In this document: positions 52,386 to 60,022 of the stretch, in pieces
Layout: each line of letters starts with the position of its first letter
Position numbering within the stretch: position 1 is the stretch's first letter
DNA from: Aquirhabdus parva
GTDB taxonomy: Bacteria > Pseudomonadota > Gammaproteobacteria > Pseudomonadales > Moraxellaceae
Assembly: GCF_003351745.1 (NCBI RefSeq)
Contig: NZ_CP031222.1
Coordinates: 2,648,207 to 2,712,206 of the forward strand
DNA length: 64,000 nucleotides
Direction of reading: 5' to 3'
Notes under the pieces: generated by a model
The model's database searches: none
What the model saw: the letters and a program-made list of their open reading frames with translations, nothing else
What the model was told of the DNA's origin: nothing
Made by a program: the position numbers and the translations under genes

Positions 52386-53624
52386 TCATGAGGTAAATAC
52401 GACATCCGACTCTTTAAGAGCGGCGATAGGCACTTGATCATAGTGCATGACCAGATTCGTACCATTCTGCTGGGCTTGAGCGAGTGCTTGTTCAGCTTGT
52501 ATCAAAATTGAATCGGCTCCCACCATGCCAAAAGGCAGACAGGTAGAGACACCAATACTCGCCGTTATCTGTATCTCAAGTCCAAACCCATCTGCAATGA
52601 TGAGATTCTCAATCCGAACCCTGATTCGCTCTGCGACAGCCAAACCCACTTCACGATGGGCAGCAGATAAAATCACAATAAAATGATCATCGTCGAAGCT
52701 GCCTGCTAAATCTTGATTACGCAAACTAAGCTGTAAAAGTTTGGCAATCTTTTTCTTCAACTCATTGCAAAAAGTACGGCCATACGTTTTTTGAATATAT
52801 TCAATTCTGTCGATGGCAATTAACAAAGTCGATATTTCTTTCTGATCTGAACTCAGTGTCACTAAACGCTCTAAGTGTTGATCAATACTGTAGCGACTTA
52901 GAAGATGGGTAAGCGAGTCTAGTTTGCTTTGCATCGCCGCATCGCGTTCGCGTTGACTCCATTGCCTTAAAATCACATCCATAATAAATAAGATAAATAG
53001 CAAAGGTGGCAGGGTAAAATAAAGCTGACTATATAAATAAAACGATGCAAAACCTTGCATCCCCACTAGGTCCTGATGGGTGAACAGTGGCGCATAAGGA
53101 ATCACGTTCAGATTACTGGCTATAGTTAAAAGTACCATAGTCAACATCGTCAGAACGGCCATGATCAGCACAATTTTACGCGGAAATAAAACTAGTCCAA
53201 TCAAAGGTGTTCCAATTACAAATACCCCTGTCGCAGGACTCAAGACGCCTAAACAATATCCTGATATACACATCGCAGTTGCGAAAAAGATGATACAAAA
53301 GATTGGAAAATAACGATTGACCCGCGCACTGGTCCGCCATGTATAGCCAAAAATCATTGCAGCAAATGCAATCATCAGAATGACCACATCTTTCCATAGT
53401 AAGATCGTCGAATTGACATTAATGAAATGGTGTAATGTTGGATGAAGCATGACAAAAGCAACATACAGCGCATACGATGTAAATAACACAACCATAATCG
53501 CAAGCAAGAGGATGCTCTTTTGAATAAAGCTCCACTCAATAATGATCAAAGAGCTGAGGTTTTTTTGGCGTATGTCACGAATGTGTTGTCTAATTTTTTT
53601 AAGTGTTAATGCTTGGGCCACCAT
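52386..53624 (-). CDS. membrane GGDEF-domain protein with destroyed active site
   Basis: A 412-residue protein with about six membrane helices (residues 30-210, LLLAIMVVLFTSYALYVAFV, LVLFPRKIVLIMAVLTMLTM) and a C-terminal GGDEF domain. The catalytic motif GG(D/E)EF is replaced by SFDDDH in the segment LAGSFDDDHFIVILSAA, and the upstream Dxx(G/N)xRR loop reads HLLSRYSI, so both substrate and metal sites look lost. It should not make c-di-GMP; a sensing or dominant regulatory role, or decay, is possible. It is clearly a paralogue of the intact gene just upstream. Confidence 0.86.
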   Translation of the reverse strand: MVAQALTLKKIRQHIRDIRQKNLSSLIIIEWSFIQKSILLLAIMVVLFTSYALYVAFVMLHPTLHHFINVNSTILLWKDVVILMIAFAAMIFGYTWRTSARVNRYFPIFCIIFFATAMCISGYCLGVLSPATGVFVIGTPLIGLVLFPRKIVLIMAVLTMLTMVLLTIASNLNVIPYAPLFTHQDLVGMQGFASFYLYSQLYFTLPPLLFILFIMDVILRQWSQRERDAAMQSKLDSLTHLLSRYSIDQHLERLVTLSSDQKEISTLLIAIDRIEYIQKTYGRTFCNELKKKIAKLLQLSLRNQDLAGSFDDDHFIVILSAAHREVGLAVAERIRVRIENLIIADGFGLEIQITASIGVSTCLPFGMVGADSILIQAEQALAQAQQNGTNLVMHYDQVPIAALKESDVVFTS

Positions 53625-53766
53625 GGTTCACATACCCATTTTAATAATATACGCTCAAAAATCAGAGCAGATCGAAAGTTCAAGCCTTCCATTCGATATG
53701 GCCTAAATTCAATACATTTTAGCGATTTATAGTGACCTAGTATACAAATTATCGACTAACAGTTTA

Positions 53767-55074
53767 TTAAATTGAAGGAGGTATGGGATATGCCCCCATA
53801 TGTTTAACCAGTGCCCCTTCTTCACTAACTTCAGCTTTAGCATCATAAATATGGAAATCGGGGGCTTGCTCTACAACCAACTGATCAAAATGAATGACTT
53901 GATTCCGTCCGGCATTCTTAGCGAAATAGAGCGCTTGATCGGCCTCGTGTAGCATAGGATCGATACCCGTCATCACTTGGGGGGCGCAACTGGATACCCC
54001 AACACTGGTCGTGATCTTAATCTCTTGTCCGTTTTTATCCAGAATGCGAATCGCTTGTATGCGATTACGTATCCGCTCCGCCACTTGCATACCTACCTGA
54101 CGCTCAGAGCGGGCAAGGACAACGATAAACTCTTCACCACCAAAGCGTCCTGCGACATCATTTTTACGCATACTCTGTTGTAGCACCTGACCAACCGCCT
54201 TGAGTACCTCATCACCGATCATATGACCATGAGTATCATTAATCTGTTTAAAGTGATCAAGGTCCAAAATCAAAATCGAGATTCGCTCCGCTTCCGTACT
54301 TTCAATAATCAAGCGCTCAAGATGTTCATTAATCGTTCGCCGATTAAACAGATTGGTCAATGAATCGAGTTGACTGAGTAACGTCACTTCCCGCCCACGC
54401 ATATGCCATTGCTTTAAAATCACATCAGCAGCAACCAAGATAATTAGCGACGGGGGCAGCATAAAATACATCTGGCTATAGAAATAGAAGCGTGAATGCT
54501 GCTTTAAATCTAAAATACCGCCGCTAGCAAAGAGTGGTGCATACGCAATCCAGCCTGATACACCAGCAAAAGCAAGCGATGTCATCAAAATCGTCGCAAG
54601 TATGGTCACCCACAACACCATCCCACGTGGAAACAAAGCGAGTCCGATCAGTGGCGTGCCGATGAGGAAGATGCCCGTGGCAGGGCTCATGGCACCAACC
54701 AGATACCCAGTAAGGCACATGGAGATCGCATAAAAGACAATAATAAAGAGAGGTAGATGTCGATTAGCCCAAGCACTTTTACGCCAGATATAGCAACAAC
54801 AGAAGAAAATAGCAGCAAGTAGGGTGACTAGAATATCTTTCCAAATCAAAATTTTGAAAAGAGGAACATTAATATAAGCCGCCCACTCTGGATTCAGCGG
54901 TACTGCAAACATATAGAGTACATAGGAAGAATAAAGCATGATCATGAATACGAGCAACAGCATGCTTTTTTGAGCAAAACTCCACTCCATCACGATAACC
55001 GAACCAAGCGTCCGTTTATATAATGCAATAATTTGCGCTTTGAGGTCTTTGGGGTTTAAATCACTGATATTCAT
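53767..55074 (-). CDS. membrane diguanylate cyclase
   Basis: A 435-residue membrane protein with six or so helices up to residue 225 and an intact GGDEF domain: DSLTNLFNRRTINEHLERL, LILDLDHFKQINDTHGHMIG, and RFGGEEFIVVLARSERQVG. It should condense two GTP into c-di-GMP. No RxxD inhibitory site is seen five residues before GGEEF (VAGRFGGEEF), so product inhibition may be weak. The N-terminal region aligns by eye with the downstream degenerate paralogue, pointing to tandem duplication. A sensory input through the membrane part is likely but the signal is unknown. Confidence 0.9.
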   Translation of the reverse strand: MNISDLNPKDLKAQIIALYKRTLGSVIVMEWSFAQKSMLLLVFMIMLYSSYVLYMFAVPLNPEWAAYINVPLFKILIWKDILVTLLAAIFFCCCYIWRKSAWANRHLPLFIIVFYAISMCLTGYLVGAMSPATGIFLIGTPLIGLALFPRGMVLWVTILATILMTSLAFAGVSGWIAYAPLFASGGILDLKQHSRFYFYSQMYFMLPPSLIILVAADVILKQWHMRGREVTLLSQLDSLTNLFNRRTINEHLERLIIESTEAERISILILDLDHFKQINDTHGHMIGDEVLKAVGQVLQQSMRKNDVAGRFGGEEFIVVLARSERQVGMQVAERIRNRIQAIRILDKNGQEIKITTSVGVSSCAPQVMTGIDPMLHEADQALYFAKNAGRNQVIHFDQLVVEQAPDFHIYDAKAEVSEEGALVKHMGAYPIPPSI

Positions 55075-55661
55075 GTTCCGTCACAAATCAGCTAGCGTGT
55101 ATTGTTCGTAAGACTGTAATGAAATAGTCTACATCCACCAACTCTTTTATGGTGATTTCCGACCAGCTCACTTATTGCCCTTATGAACGCGTTTTTTTGC
55201 TGTGTTGAAAGTCATACGTCCTTTATGACTAGTACGAGTATTCTAGCGCAAAAATTATGCAGTTGTGCTCATTTTTCGTCTGACATTTCATACCTCTGAA
55301 ACAATCACTTTATTTCAACACTGGTAAAACACCCTATTTGATCGGATATGGGATCCATTTTCACGTTATCATTTGGCATAAGGATTGCTGCACTCTTAGT
55401 GATAAAGCCGTCTGACTGCATTGCTTCAGGATAAAAATTTGCTCCTTTTGCACTCTATAGCACAAGTGATGCAAACCAATCCTATATTCATTATTTGCAT
55501 TAAGGTCGTTATAATCGGCAGAATTAAGACTATAAGTTCATGTGGCTTTCTTGCGTTTTAGATGGCGTAATGGATGTCTGATTTCAAAGCATCGATAGCA
55601 CGTCAGAATATTAACTCTGTCGAACTATGCGATGAATGCCAAAATGGAGCCTAACTTCGAT
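55075..55661. other. long intergenic region with divergent promoters
   Basis: About 590 bp without a supported gene lie between the diguanylate cyclase and the amidotransferase. A TATAAT at 55510-55515 with a weak -35 (TTCATT) 17 bp upstream is a candidate promoter for the amidotransferase, leaving a leader of some 150 bases. I searched both strands for tRNA-like or strongly paired structures and found none that convinces. Confidence 0.4.
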
Positions 55662-56504
55662 ATGTGCCAATTACTCGGCATGAACTGTGCGACACCAACT
55701 GATATTACCTTTTCATTTAAGGGATTCTCGCAGCGTGCGGGCGTGACTTCGGATCATGCCGACGGCTGGGGAATTGCTTTCTTTGAAAATAAAGCCTGTC
55801 GCCTGTTTATTGACAATCAATCTGCGGTGAACTCACCGATTGCGGATTGTTTACGTCGTAATCCGATTAAGTCCAAAAACGTGATCGCGCATATTCGTAA
55901 AGCTACACAAGGCAATATTGAAGTTGAAAATAGCCATCCGTTCATGCGGGAACTATGGGGGCGGCACTGGATCTTTGCCCATAATGGCGATCTCAAAAAT
56001 TATGCCCCAGTATTAAATGGCACCTACTTGCCTGTAGGAACGACAGACAGTGAACTGGCGTATTGTGCTCTGTTGCAAGGACTACGAGATCGCTTTGGTA
56101 ACAATGAACCGGATCTTGCTGAAATTTTCTCGGTGCTGGCCGAACTTGCGCCGACCATTGCAGCCCATGGTACTTTTAACTTTATGCTGTCCAATGGTCA
56201 GGCACTCTTTGCTTATGCGACAACAAACTTGCATTGGCTGATTCGCTCGTGGCCTTTTAGCCAAGCCCATCTGGTCGATATGGATCTCGACATCGACTTT
56301 AGTCATTATGCTAAGCCTGATGATCGTGTTGCGGTCATTGCAACTGAACCGCTGACAGACAATGAACAGTGGACTGCTTTTACTTCGGGAGAATTACTGG
56401 GTTTTGAAAATGGTCATTTACGCTATCAAGCACAAACCCACGTCAAACTCATAGAGCCGCCCACGCAGCCTGTTCAAGAACAAGCCTTTGCCAATGCTGT
56501 TTAA
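55662..56504 (+). CDS. class II glutamine amidotransferase, YafJ type
   Basis: A 280-residue protein of the class II (Ntn) glutamine amidotransferase family. Removal of the first Met exposes the catalytic Cys2 in MCQLLGMN, so ATG 55662 is the functional start although the frame is open ten codons further upstream and GGAG lies a little far. Other active-site segments are HADGWGIAFF, IAHIRKATQG, NSHPF and FAHNGDL (Asn/Gly oxyanion hole). Relatives such as YafJ have no separate synthase domain, and the acceptor of the released ammonia is unknown. A terminator follows. Confidence 0.9.
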   Translation: MCQLLGMNCATPTDITFSFKGFSQRAGVTSDHADGWGIAFFENKACRLFIDNQSAVNSPIADCLRRNPIKSKNVIAHIRKATQGNIEVENSHPFMRELWGRHWIFAHNGDLKNYAPVLNGTYLPVGTTDSELAYCALLQGLRDRFGNNEPDLAEIFSVLAELAPTIAAHGTFNFMLSNGQALFAYATTNLHWLIRSWPFSQAHLVDMDLDIDFSHYAKPDDRVAVIATEPLTDNEQWTAFTSGELLGFENGHLRYQAQTHVKLIEPPTQPVQEQAFANAV

Positions 56505-56623: not shown

Positions 56624-57646
56624 TTAAGATATCGCCTCAAAGCCGTCTAGAATAGGATTAATCAGCGCTGCCATCATTTCAATATGGGCAACATCAGCAT
56701 TCAGCGCTGGGATATATTGATAGGATTGACCACCCGCGCTAAGGAATACGTCACGATTTTCGATCGCAAGTTCTTCTAGCGTTTCTAAACAGTCTGCTGA
56801 AAACGCGGGACTGATAATCTGTACCGACTTGACGCCCGCTTGCGCCCACTCAGTCAGCAATACATTGGTATAGGGCTTAACCCACTCTTGTTTGCCAAAG
56901 CGCGATTGAAAGCTGATTGCCCACTGATCATCACGTAAACCCAATGCCTCTGCCACACGTTTAGCTGTCACATGACAACGCTCAGGGTAAGGATCGCCGC
57001 GCTCTGCATAAGGGATAGGAATACCATGAAAGGACATTAGCAGTCGATCAGGAGTCCCATGCTCAACTTGATAACGTCGCACACTATCAGCAAGCGCTTG
57101 GATATATAAGGGATGCGCAAAATAATCTTTAATAAAGGTCACTGTGGGTAAATTGCGCTGTGTCTGCATCCAGCGTGTTGCCACATCATAAACAGCGCCC
57201 GTGGATGTAGCTGAATACTGCGGAAAAAGCGGCAAGATAATGATCTGCTCGACCCCATCAGCGGATAAACGATCCAATGCTGCTGCCAAACTCGGAGTAC
57301 CATACGTCATCGCAGGCAGCACCGCGACATCCCGATGTACTATCTGAAAATCAAGCATTTGCTGAAGTGCATTGGCCTGCGCGTTCAAAATTAACCGCAT
57401 CGGTGAATCACCCATGGCCCAGATCGAAGCGTAGGCATGCGCAACACGCTTGGGCCGAAATGGCAGCACAAACAGATTAAGAATGATTGCCCAGATAACC
57501 CGCGGAATCTCTATCACCCGCGAATCGGAGAGAAACTCGCGTAAAAAACGCCGCACAGCCTGCGGCGTTGGCGCATCAGGGGTACCGAGATTAACGAGGA
57601 GCACAGCACGTTGGATTGCAGAAGTATCCTGGGAATTCGATGTCAT
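56624..57646 (-). CDS. hemH: ferrochelatase
   Basis: HemH inserts ferrous iron into protoporphyrin IX, the last step of heme synthesis. The 340-residue sequence has [38 protein letters not shown], the active-site His in [19 protein letters not shown], and the Glu-rich [19 protein letters not shown] near the end. Length is normal. Its ATG (57646) directly follows the stop codon of the DUF4062 gene (57647-57649), so the two are transcribed together and probably translationally coupled. Confidence 0.96.
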
Positions 57647-58729
57647 CTATGAACCTGTTTCAAGGCGCTGACCTGCCATGAGTTTATTAAGTTGACTCTC
57701 TCCCTGCGGTGATAAGCCCCATAGGATGCGATGCTTTTCATCACGGCCGACTGGGACAATCCATTTATTATTTTTAAGCTGCATTTTAATGGCATGCAAT
57801 GCACGAATATTAATCTGACAGCGAGCAGTCGCATGGGCACGCGGCATGGAATCTTTGACATCGCCCAGTGCTGAGATGTTCAAATAATCATTGATGATCC
57901 GCGCAAAGTCCTCTTCAGGTGCAGGCGGACGAAAGCCCGGACCCATTGCCATGAGCAGTTCATTCCATGACATTTGACGACGTGGACGCAGTTCTCGGAA
58001 ATTACCATCCTGATAGGCATGAACACGATAGTCAAAAGCAACCACCTCATCCCCACGGACCACTGGGACCTCAAGCGGTGCCGGTTTTTCTTCGATATCC
58101 ACAAAAGCCTGTTCAACTTCGGCATCCACAGGGGTCGGTCTCGCTGTAGAGCGACCACGACCTAGCGTCGTCAGTTGTTGAACTTTAAGACGTAGCTTCT
58201 CATTTTCAGCCTGCAATGCTTGCATCGGCCCATCGTTTGGACGCACCCAACCCAAGGAGGGGTAACGCTGTGTAAGTTGTGGCATGGCATGACGCAAAAT
58301 CACTTCAAGTTCACGCGGTTCGCGGAACGTGACCACCATATCACGCTCGCGTTGCAATTGACGGCGGAAATCTTGAAATTTAACCTGCCCTTCTTGCGTC
58401 TTTTCCTGAAAATCTGGGGAACGCGTCTCAGGTGACTCGTGCAGAATCACAAAAACTGGTTTTTGTTTGGTAATGGCATAGATGTATTCAAGATGGACGT
58501 AACTGACGCCCGAAGCCGATAATTCACCATAGCGAGAACCCAGCATCAATACGAAATAATCGCAATCATCGATTTGACGGCGAGCAAAAGCTGTCGTCAG
58601 CGGTGTACGAGTCTCTAGTCCCCACGAGAAAAAGCCTAAACTGGCCAAAGTTTGTGCCAGTACCGACCGCTCAGCTTGCATATCCGCGCCAGTCGTACTG
58701 ATAAATACATGATACCGCTTGTCGATCAT
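57647..58729 (-). CDS. DUF4062 protein upstream of hemH
   Basis: The 360-residue product begins with a DUF4062 domain: YHVFISTTGADMQAERSVLA, GFFSWGLETR, QIDDCDYFVLMLGSRYGELS, SYVHLEYIYAITKQKPVFVI, an alpha/beta fold distantly like TIR or nucleoside-deoxyribosyltransferase domains. A short coiled coil follows (MQALQAENEKLRLKVQQLTT, about 180-200), then a linker and a C-terminal region with WNELLMAMGPGFRPPAPEED and KWIVPVGRDEKHRILWGLSP that looks like a winged-helix or nucleic-acid-binding part. ATG 58729 with GGGAG seven bases upstream is preferred; starts 18 and 33 bases earlier exist. DUF4062 is often found in signalling and defence proteins. Function here is unknown. Confidence 0.8.
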   Translation of the reverse strand: MIDKRYHVFISTTGADMQAERSVLAQTLASLGFFSWGLETRTPLTTAFARRQIDDCDYFVLMLGSRYGELSASGVSYVHLEYIYAITKQKPVFVILHESPETRSPDFQEKTQEGQVKFQDFRRQLQRERDMVVTFREPRELEVILRHAMPQLTQRYPSLGWVRPNDGPMQALQAENEKLRLKVQQLTTLGRGRSTARPTPVDAEVEQAFVDIEEKPAPLEVPVVRGDEVVAFDYRVHAYQDGNFRELRPRRQMSWNELLMAMGPGFRPPAPEEDFARIINDYLNISALGDVKDSMPRAHATARCQINIRALHAIKMQLKNNKWIVPVGRDEKHRILWGLSPQGESQLNKLMAGQRLETGS

Positions 58730-58976: not shown

Positions 58977-59891
58977 CTATCGCCCTTGTGTCATGCGCGC
59001 CAGTAAGGTTAAAAAGCCCTGCATAAACACCAACTCCTGATCGACCTCGCGTACGGCGGCATAGAGCGTACGGCGTAATCCTAGCGGAGCTGCTTCAGCA
59101 TTTTTTGGAATTAAACGGCGACTGACCACCCAGCCTTTTTGCTCATAATCCTTCACCACCCAATCGGGTAATGCCGCTATACCACGACCACTCGCGACTA
59201 ACTGAATCAGCATCGGCGTCAGTTCAGTAGTGCGTAATTGAGCAGGCTTTAAGCCATAAGGGGTTAAATACCCCGCGACAATATCTAGTCGAGTCGGCTC
59301 AACCGGATAAGCAATTAGCGTCTGTGCTGCGACTTCTTCGGCATGAATCACCTCTTGTGCAGCAAGGGGGTGCGATGGTGCCAGGACTAGCCGGGATTCA
59401 TAGTCAAATAAGCGCAGATACTGAATGCCCTTGACGGGTAAGCAATCGGTAGTGACCAATAAATCAATCTCGCCCTGCTGTAACTGCGTATGGGGCTCTG
59501 GCTCAAAACCACTGGCAAAGTCTAAATCGACATCGGGAAAATCCTGCCGATAGCGATTCAGAACCGGCATTAACCAGTCGAAGCAGCTATGGCACTCCGA
59601 TGCCAGCAACAAACGACCAGTTTGTCCATGCGCCAGTCGCGTAAGTTCCGCACGCGTCATCTGTACCAACGGTAAGACTTGATCGGCAAGCTGGAGTAAG
59701 CGTAATCCGGCTGCTGAAAACTGGAGAGGCTTGGTCTTGCGATTGACCAACGACATCGATAACCATTGCTCAAGCTCTTTGAGTTGATGTGACAACGCTG
59801 AGGGGGTGAGGTGTAGATGCTCAGATGCGGCGGCCAAGGAGCCTTGCTCACGGAGCGCGTGCAATGTTTTCAAGTGGCGAATTTCCAGCAT
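58977..59891 (-). CDS. metR: LysR-type regulator MetR
   Basis: MetR activates methionine synthesis genes with homocysteine as coinducer. The 304-residue protein has the helix-turn-helix LEIRHLKTLHALREQGSLAA, LTPSALSHQLKELEQWL and the MetR-specific effector-domain block LASECHSCFDWLMPVL, with VDLDFASGFEPEPHTQLQQG and PLFDY-like YLRLFDYESRLVLAPSHPLA. ATG 59891 has AAGG eight bases upstream, better than the GTG three codons earlier. In most relatives the divergent neighbour is metE; here only a fragment of metE remains. Confidence 0.92.
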   Translation of the reverse strand: MLEIRHLKTLHALREQGSLAAASEHLHLTPSALSHQLKELEQWLSMSLVNRKTKPLQFSAAGLRLLQLADQVLPLVQMTRAELTRLAHGQTGRLLLASECHSCFDWLMPVLNRYRQDFPDVDLDFASGFEPEPHTQLQQGEIDLLVTTDCLPVKGIQYLRLFDYESRLVLAPSHPLAAQEVIHAEEVAAQTLIAYPVEPTRLDIVAGYLTPYGLKPAQLRTTELTPMLIQLVASGRGIAALPDWVVKDYEQKGWVVSRRLIPKNAEAAPLGLRRTLYAAVREVDQELVFMQGFLTLLARMTQGR

Positions 59892-60022
59892 GAAGCGCAC
59901 CTTTTCAAAATAAAAATATTTTAATGTTAATATTATTCATCTTATCATGAAAAAGATGAGCCTAATTCATGTTTGTAAAATAGTCACACTAGAACAGCGA
60001 AATTCTTGTTAGGCCGTAATAA

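What the first reader, a model, noticed from the sequence alone, without database searches (positions are those of the whole stretch)
56624..58729. DUF4062 protein coupled to ferrochelatase
The DUF4062 gene ends one base before hemH starts, so heme synthesis would be made from the same message as a protein of a family often linked to signalling or conflict systems. The C-terminal part looks DNA- or RNA-binding. Coupling might let a stress or infection signal change heme output, or could be a simple accident of order.
Basis: inference. Interest (0 to 1): 0.52.

Follow-up and report, generated by a model that had tools for sequence, protein, structure and literature searches.

The report
Core TIR-like NADase gene beside hemH
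The gene next to the heme gene encodes a relative of a newly described phage-defence enzyme that destroys NAD, but here it is a fixed, inherited gene whose older neighbour is a cell-wall gene, so the link to heme looks like mere gene order.

Summary
Observation confirmed: a 360-aa DUF4062 gene (57647-58729, -) abuts hemH (56624-57646, -), and the pair recurs in related genera. The heme reading is not supported. Among 122 loci examined, murI is directly upstream in 115; hemH follows in 69, all in four genera; other genera have other genes there. In the window's genus murI has left the site. The protein has the layout of Swarozyc (KpSwz), an anti-phage TIR-like NADase reported in a May 2026 preprint: TIR-like domain with the catalytic Glu (E81), stalk, winged helix. 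Unlike what is reported for Swarozyc, it is near-universal and inherited in place (116 of 119 genomes of the Acinetobacter group; 45 of 46 in a second family). Its sensor hairpin is nearly constant, while mobile copies in the same bacterial family vary there. Several lineages lost the catalytic Glu; the one tested still shows dN/dS near 0.08. Best reading: a resident TIR-like NADase or NAD-binding switch reading a constant ligand. NADase activity, ligand and any phage role are untested.

The parts
57647..58729 (-). DUF4062 gene, 360 aa (ATG at 58729, stop TAG 57647-57649)
   Evidence: full-length profile match to KpSwz
58250..58723 (-). TIR-like (DUF4062) domain, residues 3-160
   Evidence: Pfam PF13271, residues 8-85; fold matches to TIR domains and MilB-type N-glycosidases over about 3-160 (Foldseek had none at E <= 0.001)
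58487..58489 (-). codon of E81, aligned with catalytic E97 of KpSwz (Ala in the solved mutant chain)
   Evidence: alignments; offset of 13 worked out by me from the construct name KpSwz 15-C,E97A
58052..58249 (-). predicted helical stalk and low-confidence linker, residues 161-226
   Evidence: model, (block means of pLDDT mostly 32-52 here)
57668..58051 (-). C-terminal winged-helix (AUX-like) domain, residues 227-354
   Evidence: model of residues 227-360, mean pLDDT 89.7; RosR/PadR/MarR-type folds, best Z 9.0 (Foldseek had none at E <= 0.001)
57992..58024 (-). beta-hairpin tip, residues 236-246, with the nearly constant AYxxGN motif
   Evidence: entropy, hairpin comparison
56624..57646 (-). 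hemH, ferrochelatase, 340 aa
57644..57649 (-). stop-start contact TAG|ATG between the two genes

Best explanation
The protein is a resident, vertically inherited relative of the Swarozyc anti-phage NADase: a TIR-like NAD+ hydrolase domain on a helical stalk with a C-terminal winged-helix sensor that carries a beta-hairpin. Most likely it idles as a closed oligomer and is switched on when the sensor hairpin binds a ligand, after which it consumes NAD+ or signals by binding it. Because the hairpin is nearly constant across genera while mobile copies vary there, the ligand is probably constant too: a cellular factor or an unvarying phage feature. Several lineages dropped the catalytic Glu but kept the gene, so a non-enzymatic role probably exists beside hydrolysis. 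Adjacency to hemH is inherited gene order. Shown here by sequence: layout, retained Glu, gene order, wide presence, purifying selection in two genera, hairpin constancy. Inferred: closed oligomer, activation, constant ligand, non-enzymatic role.
For: Profile of 27 relatives matches KpSwz (PDB 10wc, 11cq, 11cv) over positions 2-336, E 1.6e-68 (that profile includes L029, a Swarozyc-like copy); a profile of the genus and Alkanindiges group alone still matches 2-350, E 4.2e-28. E81 aligns with E97. Presence: 33 of 37 family genomes (one of the 33, G004, is the Swarozyc-like copy) and 5 of 21 other genomes of the order; 116 of 119 of genus g15; 45 of 46 of family f43. murI upstream in 115 of 122 loci. 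Median dN/dS 0.074 (g15, 25 pairs within the dS limits 0.15-1.2) and 0.079 (g9, 27 such pairs; all 31 g9 sequences have Ser for Glu). Glu absent in 41 of 122; at least 4 changes on the order tree. Hairpin segment of 22 residues in 116 of 118 positional copies, 16-27 in 12 accessory ones; at TIR identity 0.60-0.75 median hairpin identity 0.79 (944 pairs) against 0.06 (28 pairs). Accessory copies keep Glu in 22 of 22 readable.
Against: No biochemical test. Among distant positional pairs (TIR identity 0.2-0.4) hairpin identity is only 0.29-0.36 against 0.25-0.27 for the winged-helix core, so constancy there rests on a few residues. Accessory hairpins may be misaligned, which lowers their identity, and pairs are not independent. 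The tree needs only 2 changes for the Glu loss, against 4; both hold long branches. Two g15 genomes lost the gene cleanly and one is cut to 186 aa, so it is dispensable. Outside some families it is patchy: 33 of 194 in the order sample. The whole-protein model is weak (mean pLDDT 64), and Foldseek found no match at E <= 0.001 for it or for the C-terminal domain. dN/dS of murI and hemH is lower in g15 (0.044, 0.036).
Confidence: 0.55

Rival explanations
1. It is an ordinary anti-phage Swarozyc that happens to sit at a fixed chromosomal site: the sensor binds phage portal proteins and NAD+ loss kills infected cells.
For: Same layout and catalytic Glu as KpSwz. The hairpin tyrosine Y239 lies opposite one of the two portal-anchor residues of KpSwz, Y239 in one alignment and W238 in the other; anchors as named in PMC13174449.
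Against: Near-universal in some families and inherited in place against the patchy 1-15% stated in PMC13174449; nearly constant hairpin; Glu lost in whole lineages while accessory copies keep it, 22 of 22; the named neighbours in A. baumannii are housekeeping genes, though no systematic defence search of the neighbourhoods was made.
Confidence: 0.27
2. It is an NAD-responsive DNA-binding regulator: the TIR-like domain binds NAD+ or ADP-ribose and the winged helix binds DNA.
For: Winged-helix fold like RosR, PadR and MarR proteins; AUX median net charge +2 in positional copies, -2 in accessory ones; catalysis dispensable in several lineages.
Against: In KpSwz the same kind of domain binds a protein (PMC13174449); the charge is weak, and the helix 305-322 falls from +2 to 0 in Glu-less copies. 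No operator was sought.
Confidence: 0.18
3. It works with MurI (glutamate racemase) or senses cell-wall state, which would explain the old murI adjacency.
For: murI directly upstream, same strand, in 115 of 122 loci, also in ten loci of g3-g6, g12 and g13 where none of the other 15 A. baumannii neighbours searched for turned up, save one weak MBL match in L141.
Against: In the window's genus murI lies elsewhere (G000 at 1,130,101 against 2,705,856) with the gene intact; no murI match beside the relatives of other families; gaps between aligned ends run from 44 to 612 nt.
Confidence: 0.12
4. One reading: coupled expression lets a stress or infection signal alter heme synthesis.
For: Pair kept in g1, g8, g10 and g15, and kept in g1 where murI was lost; stop-start contact TAG|ATG in the window.
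Against: Contact not kept in the three genus mates; hemH not beside it in the other genera; two genomes lack the gene with murI next to hemH.
Confidence: 0.05

Closest known systems
Swarozyc (KpSwz, Klebsiella pneumoniae DUF4062; PDB 10wc, 11cq, 11cv; preprint PMC13174449)
   Same: TIR-like DUF4062 domain with the catalytic Glu, helical stalk, winged-helix AUX domain with hairpin; full-length profile match
   Different: Here near-universal in some families and inherited in place; the hairpin reads AYxxGN, nearly constant, with one aromatic residue opposite the W238/Y239 anchor pair (which of the two depends on the alignment); catalytic Glu lost in related lineages
Human TEP1, NWD1, NWD2, NPHP3 (DUF4062-NACHT proteins, as described in PMC13174449)
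   Same: DUF4062 domain; the preprint reports NADase activity only for TEP1 among the four, so members without detected activity are known
   Different: No NACHT or WD40 family among the Pfam matches here
MarR/PadR/RosR winged-helix regulators
   Same: Predicted fold of the C-terminal domain, Z up to 9.0 over 87 residues
   Different: Joined to a TIR-like domain; no DNA binding shown; best Foldseek E 8.7e-3

Membership tests
DUF4062 (PF13271) | Score above the curated cut-off | tested here: met
   65.1 bits against 24.7
Swarozyc | N-terminal TIR-like DUF4062 domain | tested here: met
Swarozyc | Catalytic Glu (E97 of KpSwz) | tested here: met
   E81 in the window protein
Swarozyc | Helical stalk and winged-helix AUX domain | tested here: met
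   Profile match over the whole length; C-terminal model pLDDT 89.7; the stalk itself is of low confidence
Swarozyc | Portal-anchoring hairpin with W238/Y239 | tested here: inconclusive
   One aromatic residue (Y239) instead of two; it falls opposite Y239 and opposite W238
Swarozyc | Patchy, horizontally spread, often beside defence genes | tested here: not met
   Presence and fixed position; neighbourhoods not searched for defence genes systematically. The preprint puts only about 20% in defence islands, so this is usual and not strict
Swarozyc | Portal-activated NADase giving abortive infection | not testable with these tools
   needs enzyme and phage assays
Canonical TIR (PF13676 TIR_2) | Score above the curated cut-off | tested here: not met
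   25.3 bits against 28
MarR/PadR-type transcription regulator | Winged-helix fold | tested here: met
   predicted model, Z 9.0 at best; Foldseek E no better than 8.7e-3
MarR/PadR-type transcription regulator | Sequence-specific DNA binding | not testable with these tools
   needs a binding assay

The most novel reading that the evidence does not exclude
An anti-phage TIR-like NADase was domesticated long ago in this order of bacteria into a core cellular NAD switch: the phage sensor was frozen onto a constant cellular ligand, and in several lineages catalysis was discarded while the binding switch was kept.
Probability: 0.38. Interest if true: 0.8.

Novelty: new variant of a known kind. Interest (0 to 1): 0.55.

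Why it matters
The preprint describes bacterial DUF4062 NADases as patchy, mobile immune executioners. A core, inherited member with a frozen sensor and repeated loss of the catalytic residue would be a bacterial case of an immune enzyme turned cellular switch, a useful comparison for TEP1 of the vault. It could be tested in the laboratory strain Acinetobacter baylyi ADP1 if that strain carries the gene (not checked here).

Tried and rejected
Heme coupling was the starting idea and was dropped on gene-order evidence. PADLOC had no model for either of the two proteins and NCBIfam none for the DUF4062 protein. Promoter and terminator scans were uninformative: 8 promoter-like sites against 5.9 expected, 1 terminator-like site against 4.3. 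KpSwz did not appear in the rows shown by the structure searches; that library ends in April 2026, so this says nothing. Searches for print: 'DUF4062' 9 papers, of which by listing only PMC13174449 is about the domain's function; 'KpSwz', 'Swz', 'DUF4062 TIR' 394 papers, 20 listed, again only that one fits by listing; 'Acinetobacter, murI, hemH' 2 papers, unrelated by listing; 'Acinetobacter, TIR domain, glutamate racemase' 0; 'Acinetobacter, TIR-like, core genome, NADase' 0. 'Swarozyc' gave 0 although the paper uses the word, presumably because of accented letters. dN/dS in the window's genus is unreliable, median dS about 2.

Rows left out before counts. Hairpin counts: from the 122, the g2 copy, the f2 outgroup, the truncated L234 and the contig-end L022, leaving 118; of 23 accessory loci, 11 used plus L029 (the same gene as L104): left out were L118 and L120 (same hairpins as L113 and L119 in the print), seven with other C-termini (L102, L103, L106, L107, L110, L124, L126), L104, L121 (short) and L108 (frame extraction failed). 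Tree: 73 of 122 rows; tree: 41 of 44. The 61 g15 and 31 g9 loci are those fetched, not all genomes with a match. dN/dS used only pairs within set dS limits.

Full report
What is there. On the minus strand, a 360-aa DUF4062 gene (57647-58729) is followed with no gap by hemH (56624-57646). Upstream on the same strand lies a LysR-type regulator, nearest to MetR but below that model's cut-off (58977-59900); on the other side, on the plus strand, a class-II glutamine amidotransferase (55632-56504). Pfam gives DUF4062 at 65.1 bits and ferrochelatase at 364 bits.

Which organism. The window lies in a single-contig genome of 3.78 Mb. Equal contig lengths tie its three genus mates to MAG contigs, two titled Moraxellaceae and one Gammaproteobacteria, and two of the three g10 genomes to Alkanindiges illinoisensis.

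What the protein is. A profile of 27 relatives finds one clear solved relative, KpSwz, chains 10wc/11cq/11cv, E 1.6e-68 over profile positions 2-336. As that profile holds a Swarozyc-like copy (L029), I repeated it with only the genus and Alkanindiges-group sequences: E 4.2e-28 over 2-350. The single protein matches over residues 2-216, E 1.7e-23. Of the preprint on KpSwz (PMC13174449) I read the outline and parts 1-3 of 6 of the text, up to the start of the reference list, not the figure legends. It reports that DUF4062 is a TIR-like NADase, that defence needs E97 and the auxiliary domain, and that this HTH/winged domain binds the phage portal, with W238 and Y239 at the tip of a hairpin, leading to NAD+ loss and abortive infection. 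The construct name implies an offset of 13 from the chain numbering (my working). E97, Ala in the solved mutant chain, then lies opposite E81 of the window protein. The hairpin tyrosine Y239 of the window lies opposite Y239 of KpSwz and opposite W238. The predicted C-terminal domain is confident (pLDDT 89.7) and is a winged helix like RosR, PadR and MarR proteins (best Z 9.0, rmsd 2.5, 87 aligned). The whole model is weak (pLDDT 64), yet the nearest folds of its first 160 residues are TIR domains and the CMP N-glycosidase MilB (Z 12.4 and 11.1). Foldseek gave no match at E <= 0.001 for either model.

How widely it occurs. 33 of 37 genomes of the family sample and 5 of 21 other genomes of the order carry a match; one of the 33, G004, is the Swarozyc-like copy. 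In g15 it is 116 of 119, one of them cut short. In g9 it is 34 of 40, one a weak match to an accessory-type copy. 267 of 299 family genomes have some DUF4062 domain, accessory copies included. In a second family, f43, it is 45 of 46. Across the order sample it is 33 of 194 at E 1e-10, five of them from the window's family. So it is core in some families and patchy or absent elsewhere; several g2 and g11 genomes are among the listed misses.

Gene order. In 122 loci, murI is directly upstream on the same strand in 115; the 7 exceptions are the 4 loci of the window's genus, one g2 copy, one outgroup from another family, and one g9 locus at a contig start. hemH is downstream in 69 of 122: 4 of 4 g1, 1 of 1 g8, 3 of 3 g10, the A. 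baumannii record, and 60 of 61 g15. In g3, g4, g5, g6, g12 and g13 the usual downstream genes encode what I read from the sequences as a FAD-linked oxidase, GlpD and an FGGY kinase; in five g7 and g9 loci a small acidic protein (names from recall, not from a family search). In A. baumannii the order is murI, DUF4062, hemH. The simplest history is that murI is the older neighbour, hemH joined in one group of genera, and the window's genus later lost murI from the site (murI of G000 at 1,130,101). No murI or hemH match lay beside the relatives in other families, and none of the f43 loci clustered with murI. Two g15 genomes (G092, G160) have murI next to hemH with no DUF4062 match between; a third without a match, G089, also lacked a murI match and cannot be judged. 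G106 keeps only 186 aa.

Selection and the catalytic residue. Median dN/dS is 0.074 in g15 (25 pairs), against 0.044 for murI and 0.036 for hemH; in g9 it is 0.079 (27 pairs) against 0.078 for murI. Yet all 31 g9 copies examined have Ser in place of the catalytic Glu; over the 122 sequences the position is Glu 81, Ser 34, Asp 6, Asn 1. The two f7 and four f6 relatives also lack it, while 20 of 20 f43 copies keep it. Parsimony needs 2 changes on the tree and 4 on the order tree, both with long branches. The window protein keeps Glu.

The sensor hairpin. The hairpin tip (residues 236-246) has mean entropy 1.42 against 1.83 for the TIR-like domain and 2.05 for the whole AUX domain; in g9 0.21. 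Of the regions compared only the catalytic loop is lower over all sequences (1.21). Its Y-to-W segment is 22 residues long in 116 of 118 positional copies but 16-27 in 12 accessory copies from the same family of bacteria; at TIR identity 0.60-0.75, median hairpin identity is 0.79 in positional and 0.06 in accessory pairs. All 22 readable accessory copies keep Glu. Against this, distant positional pairs share little more in the hairpin than in the core, accessory hairpins may be misaligned, and pairs are not independent. A similar motif (Y or F, two residues, G, mostly N or D) occurs in the relatives of f2, f26, f35 and most of f43.

Reading. The protein most likely works like Swarozyc in layout, but its distribution, frozen hairpin and repeated loss of catalysis point to a resident role with a constant ligand. 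That it hydrolyses NAD+, what it binds, and whether phage are involved are not shown. The heme link is best explained by gene order.

Noticed in passing
window 52386-55074 (-): Two neighbouring GGDEF proteins, 45% identical in the matched part, look like a tandem duplication of a diguanylate cyclase.
   Followed up: no
L069 (NZ_CP078044.1, A. junii plasmid): A DUF4062 gene sits between a reverse transcriptase gene and, past a transposase, an MspI-type restriction-modification pair on a mobilizable plasmid.
   Followed up: no
L070 (CAKLQH020000005.1): A record named Acinetobacter phage MD-2021a holds bacterial housekeeping genes (lnt, murI, hemH, ubiB) in the stretch seen and looks like a host chromosome contig.
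   Followed up: partly
L290, L291, L293, L294 (family f6); L288, L289 (family f7): Relatives with Val, Leu, Ala or Ile in place of the catalytic Glu, most with a hairpin like that of the window protein.
   Followed up: partly
L234 (G106): Copy between murI and hemH cut to 186 aa, about the TIR-like domain alone.
   Followed up: no
L318-L324 (family f43): There the gene lies near an opposite-strand ParA-like gene in 6 of 7 loci and a gene that reads as prolyl-tRNA synthetase in 5 of 7 (names from recall).
   Followed up: no
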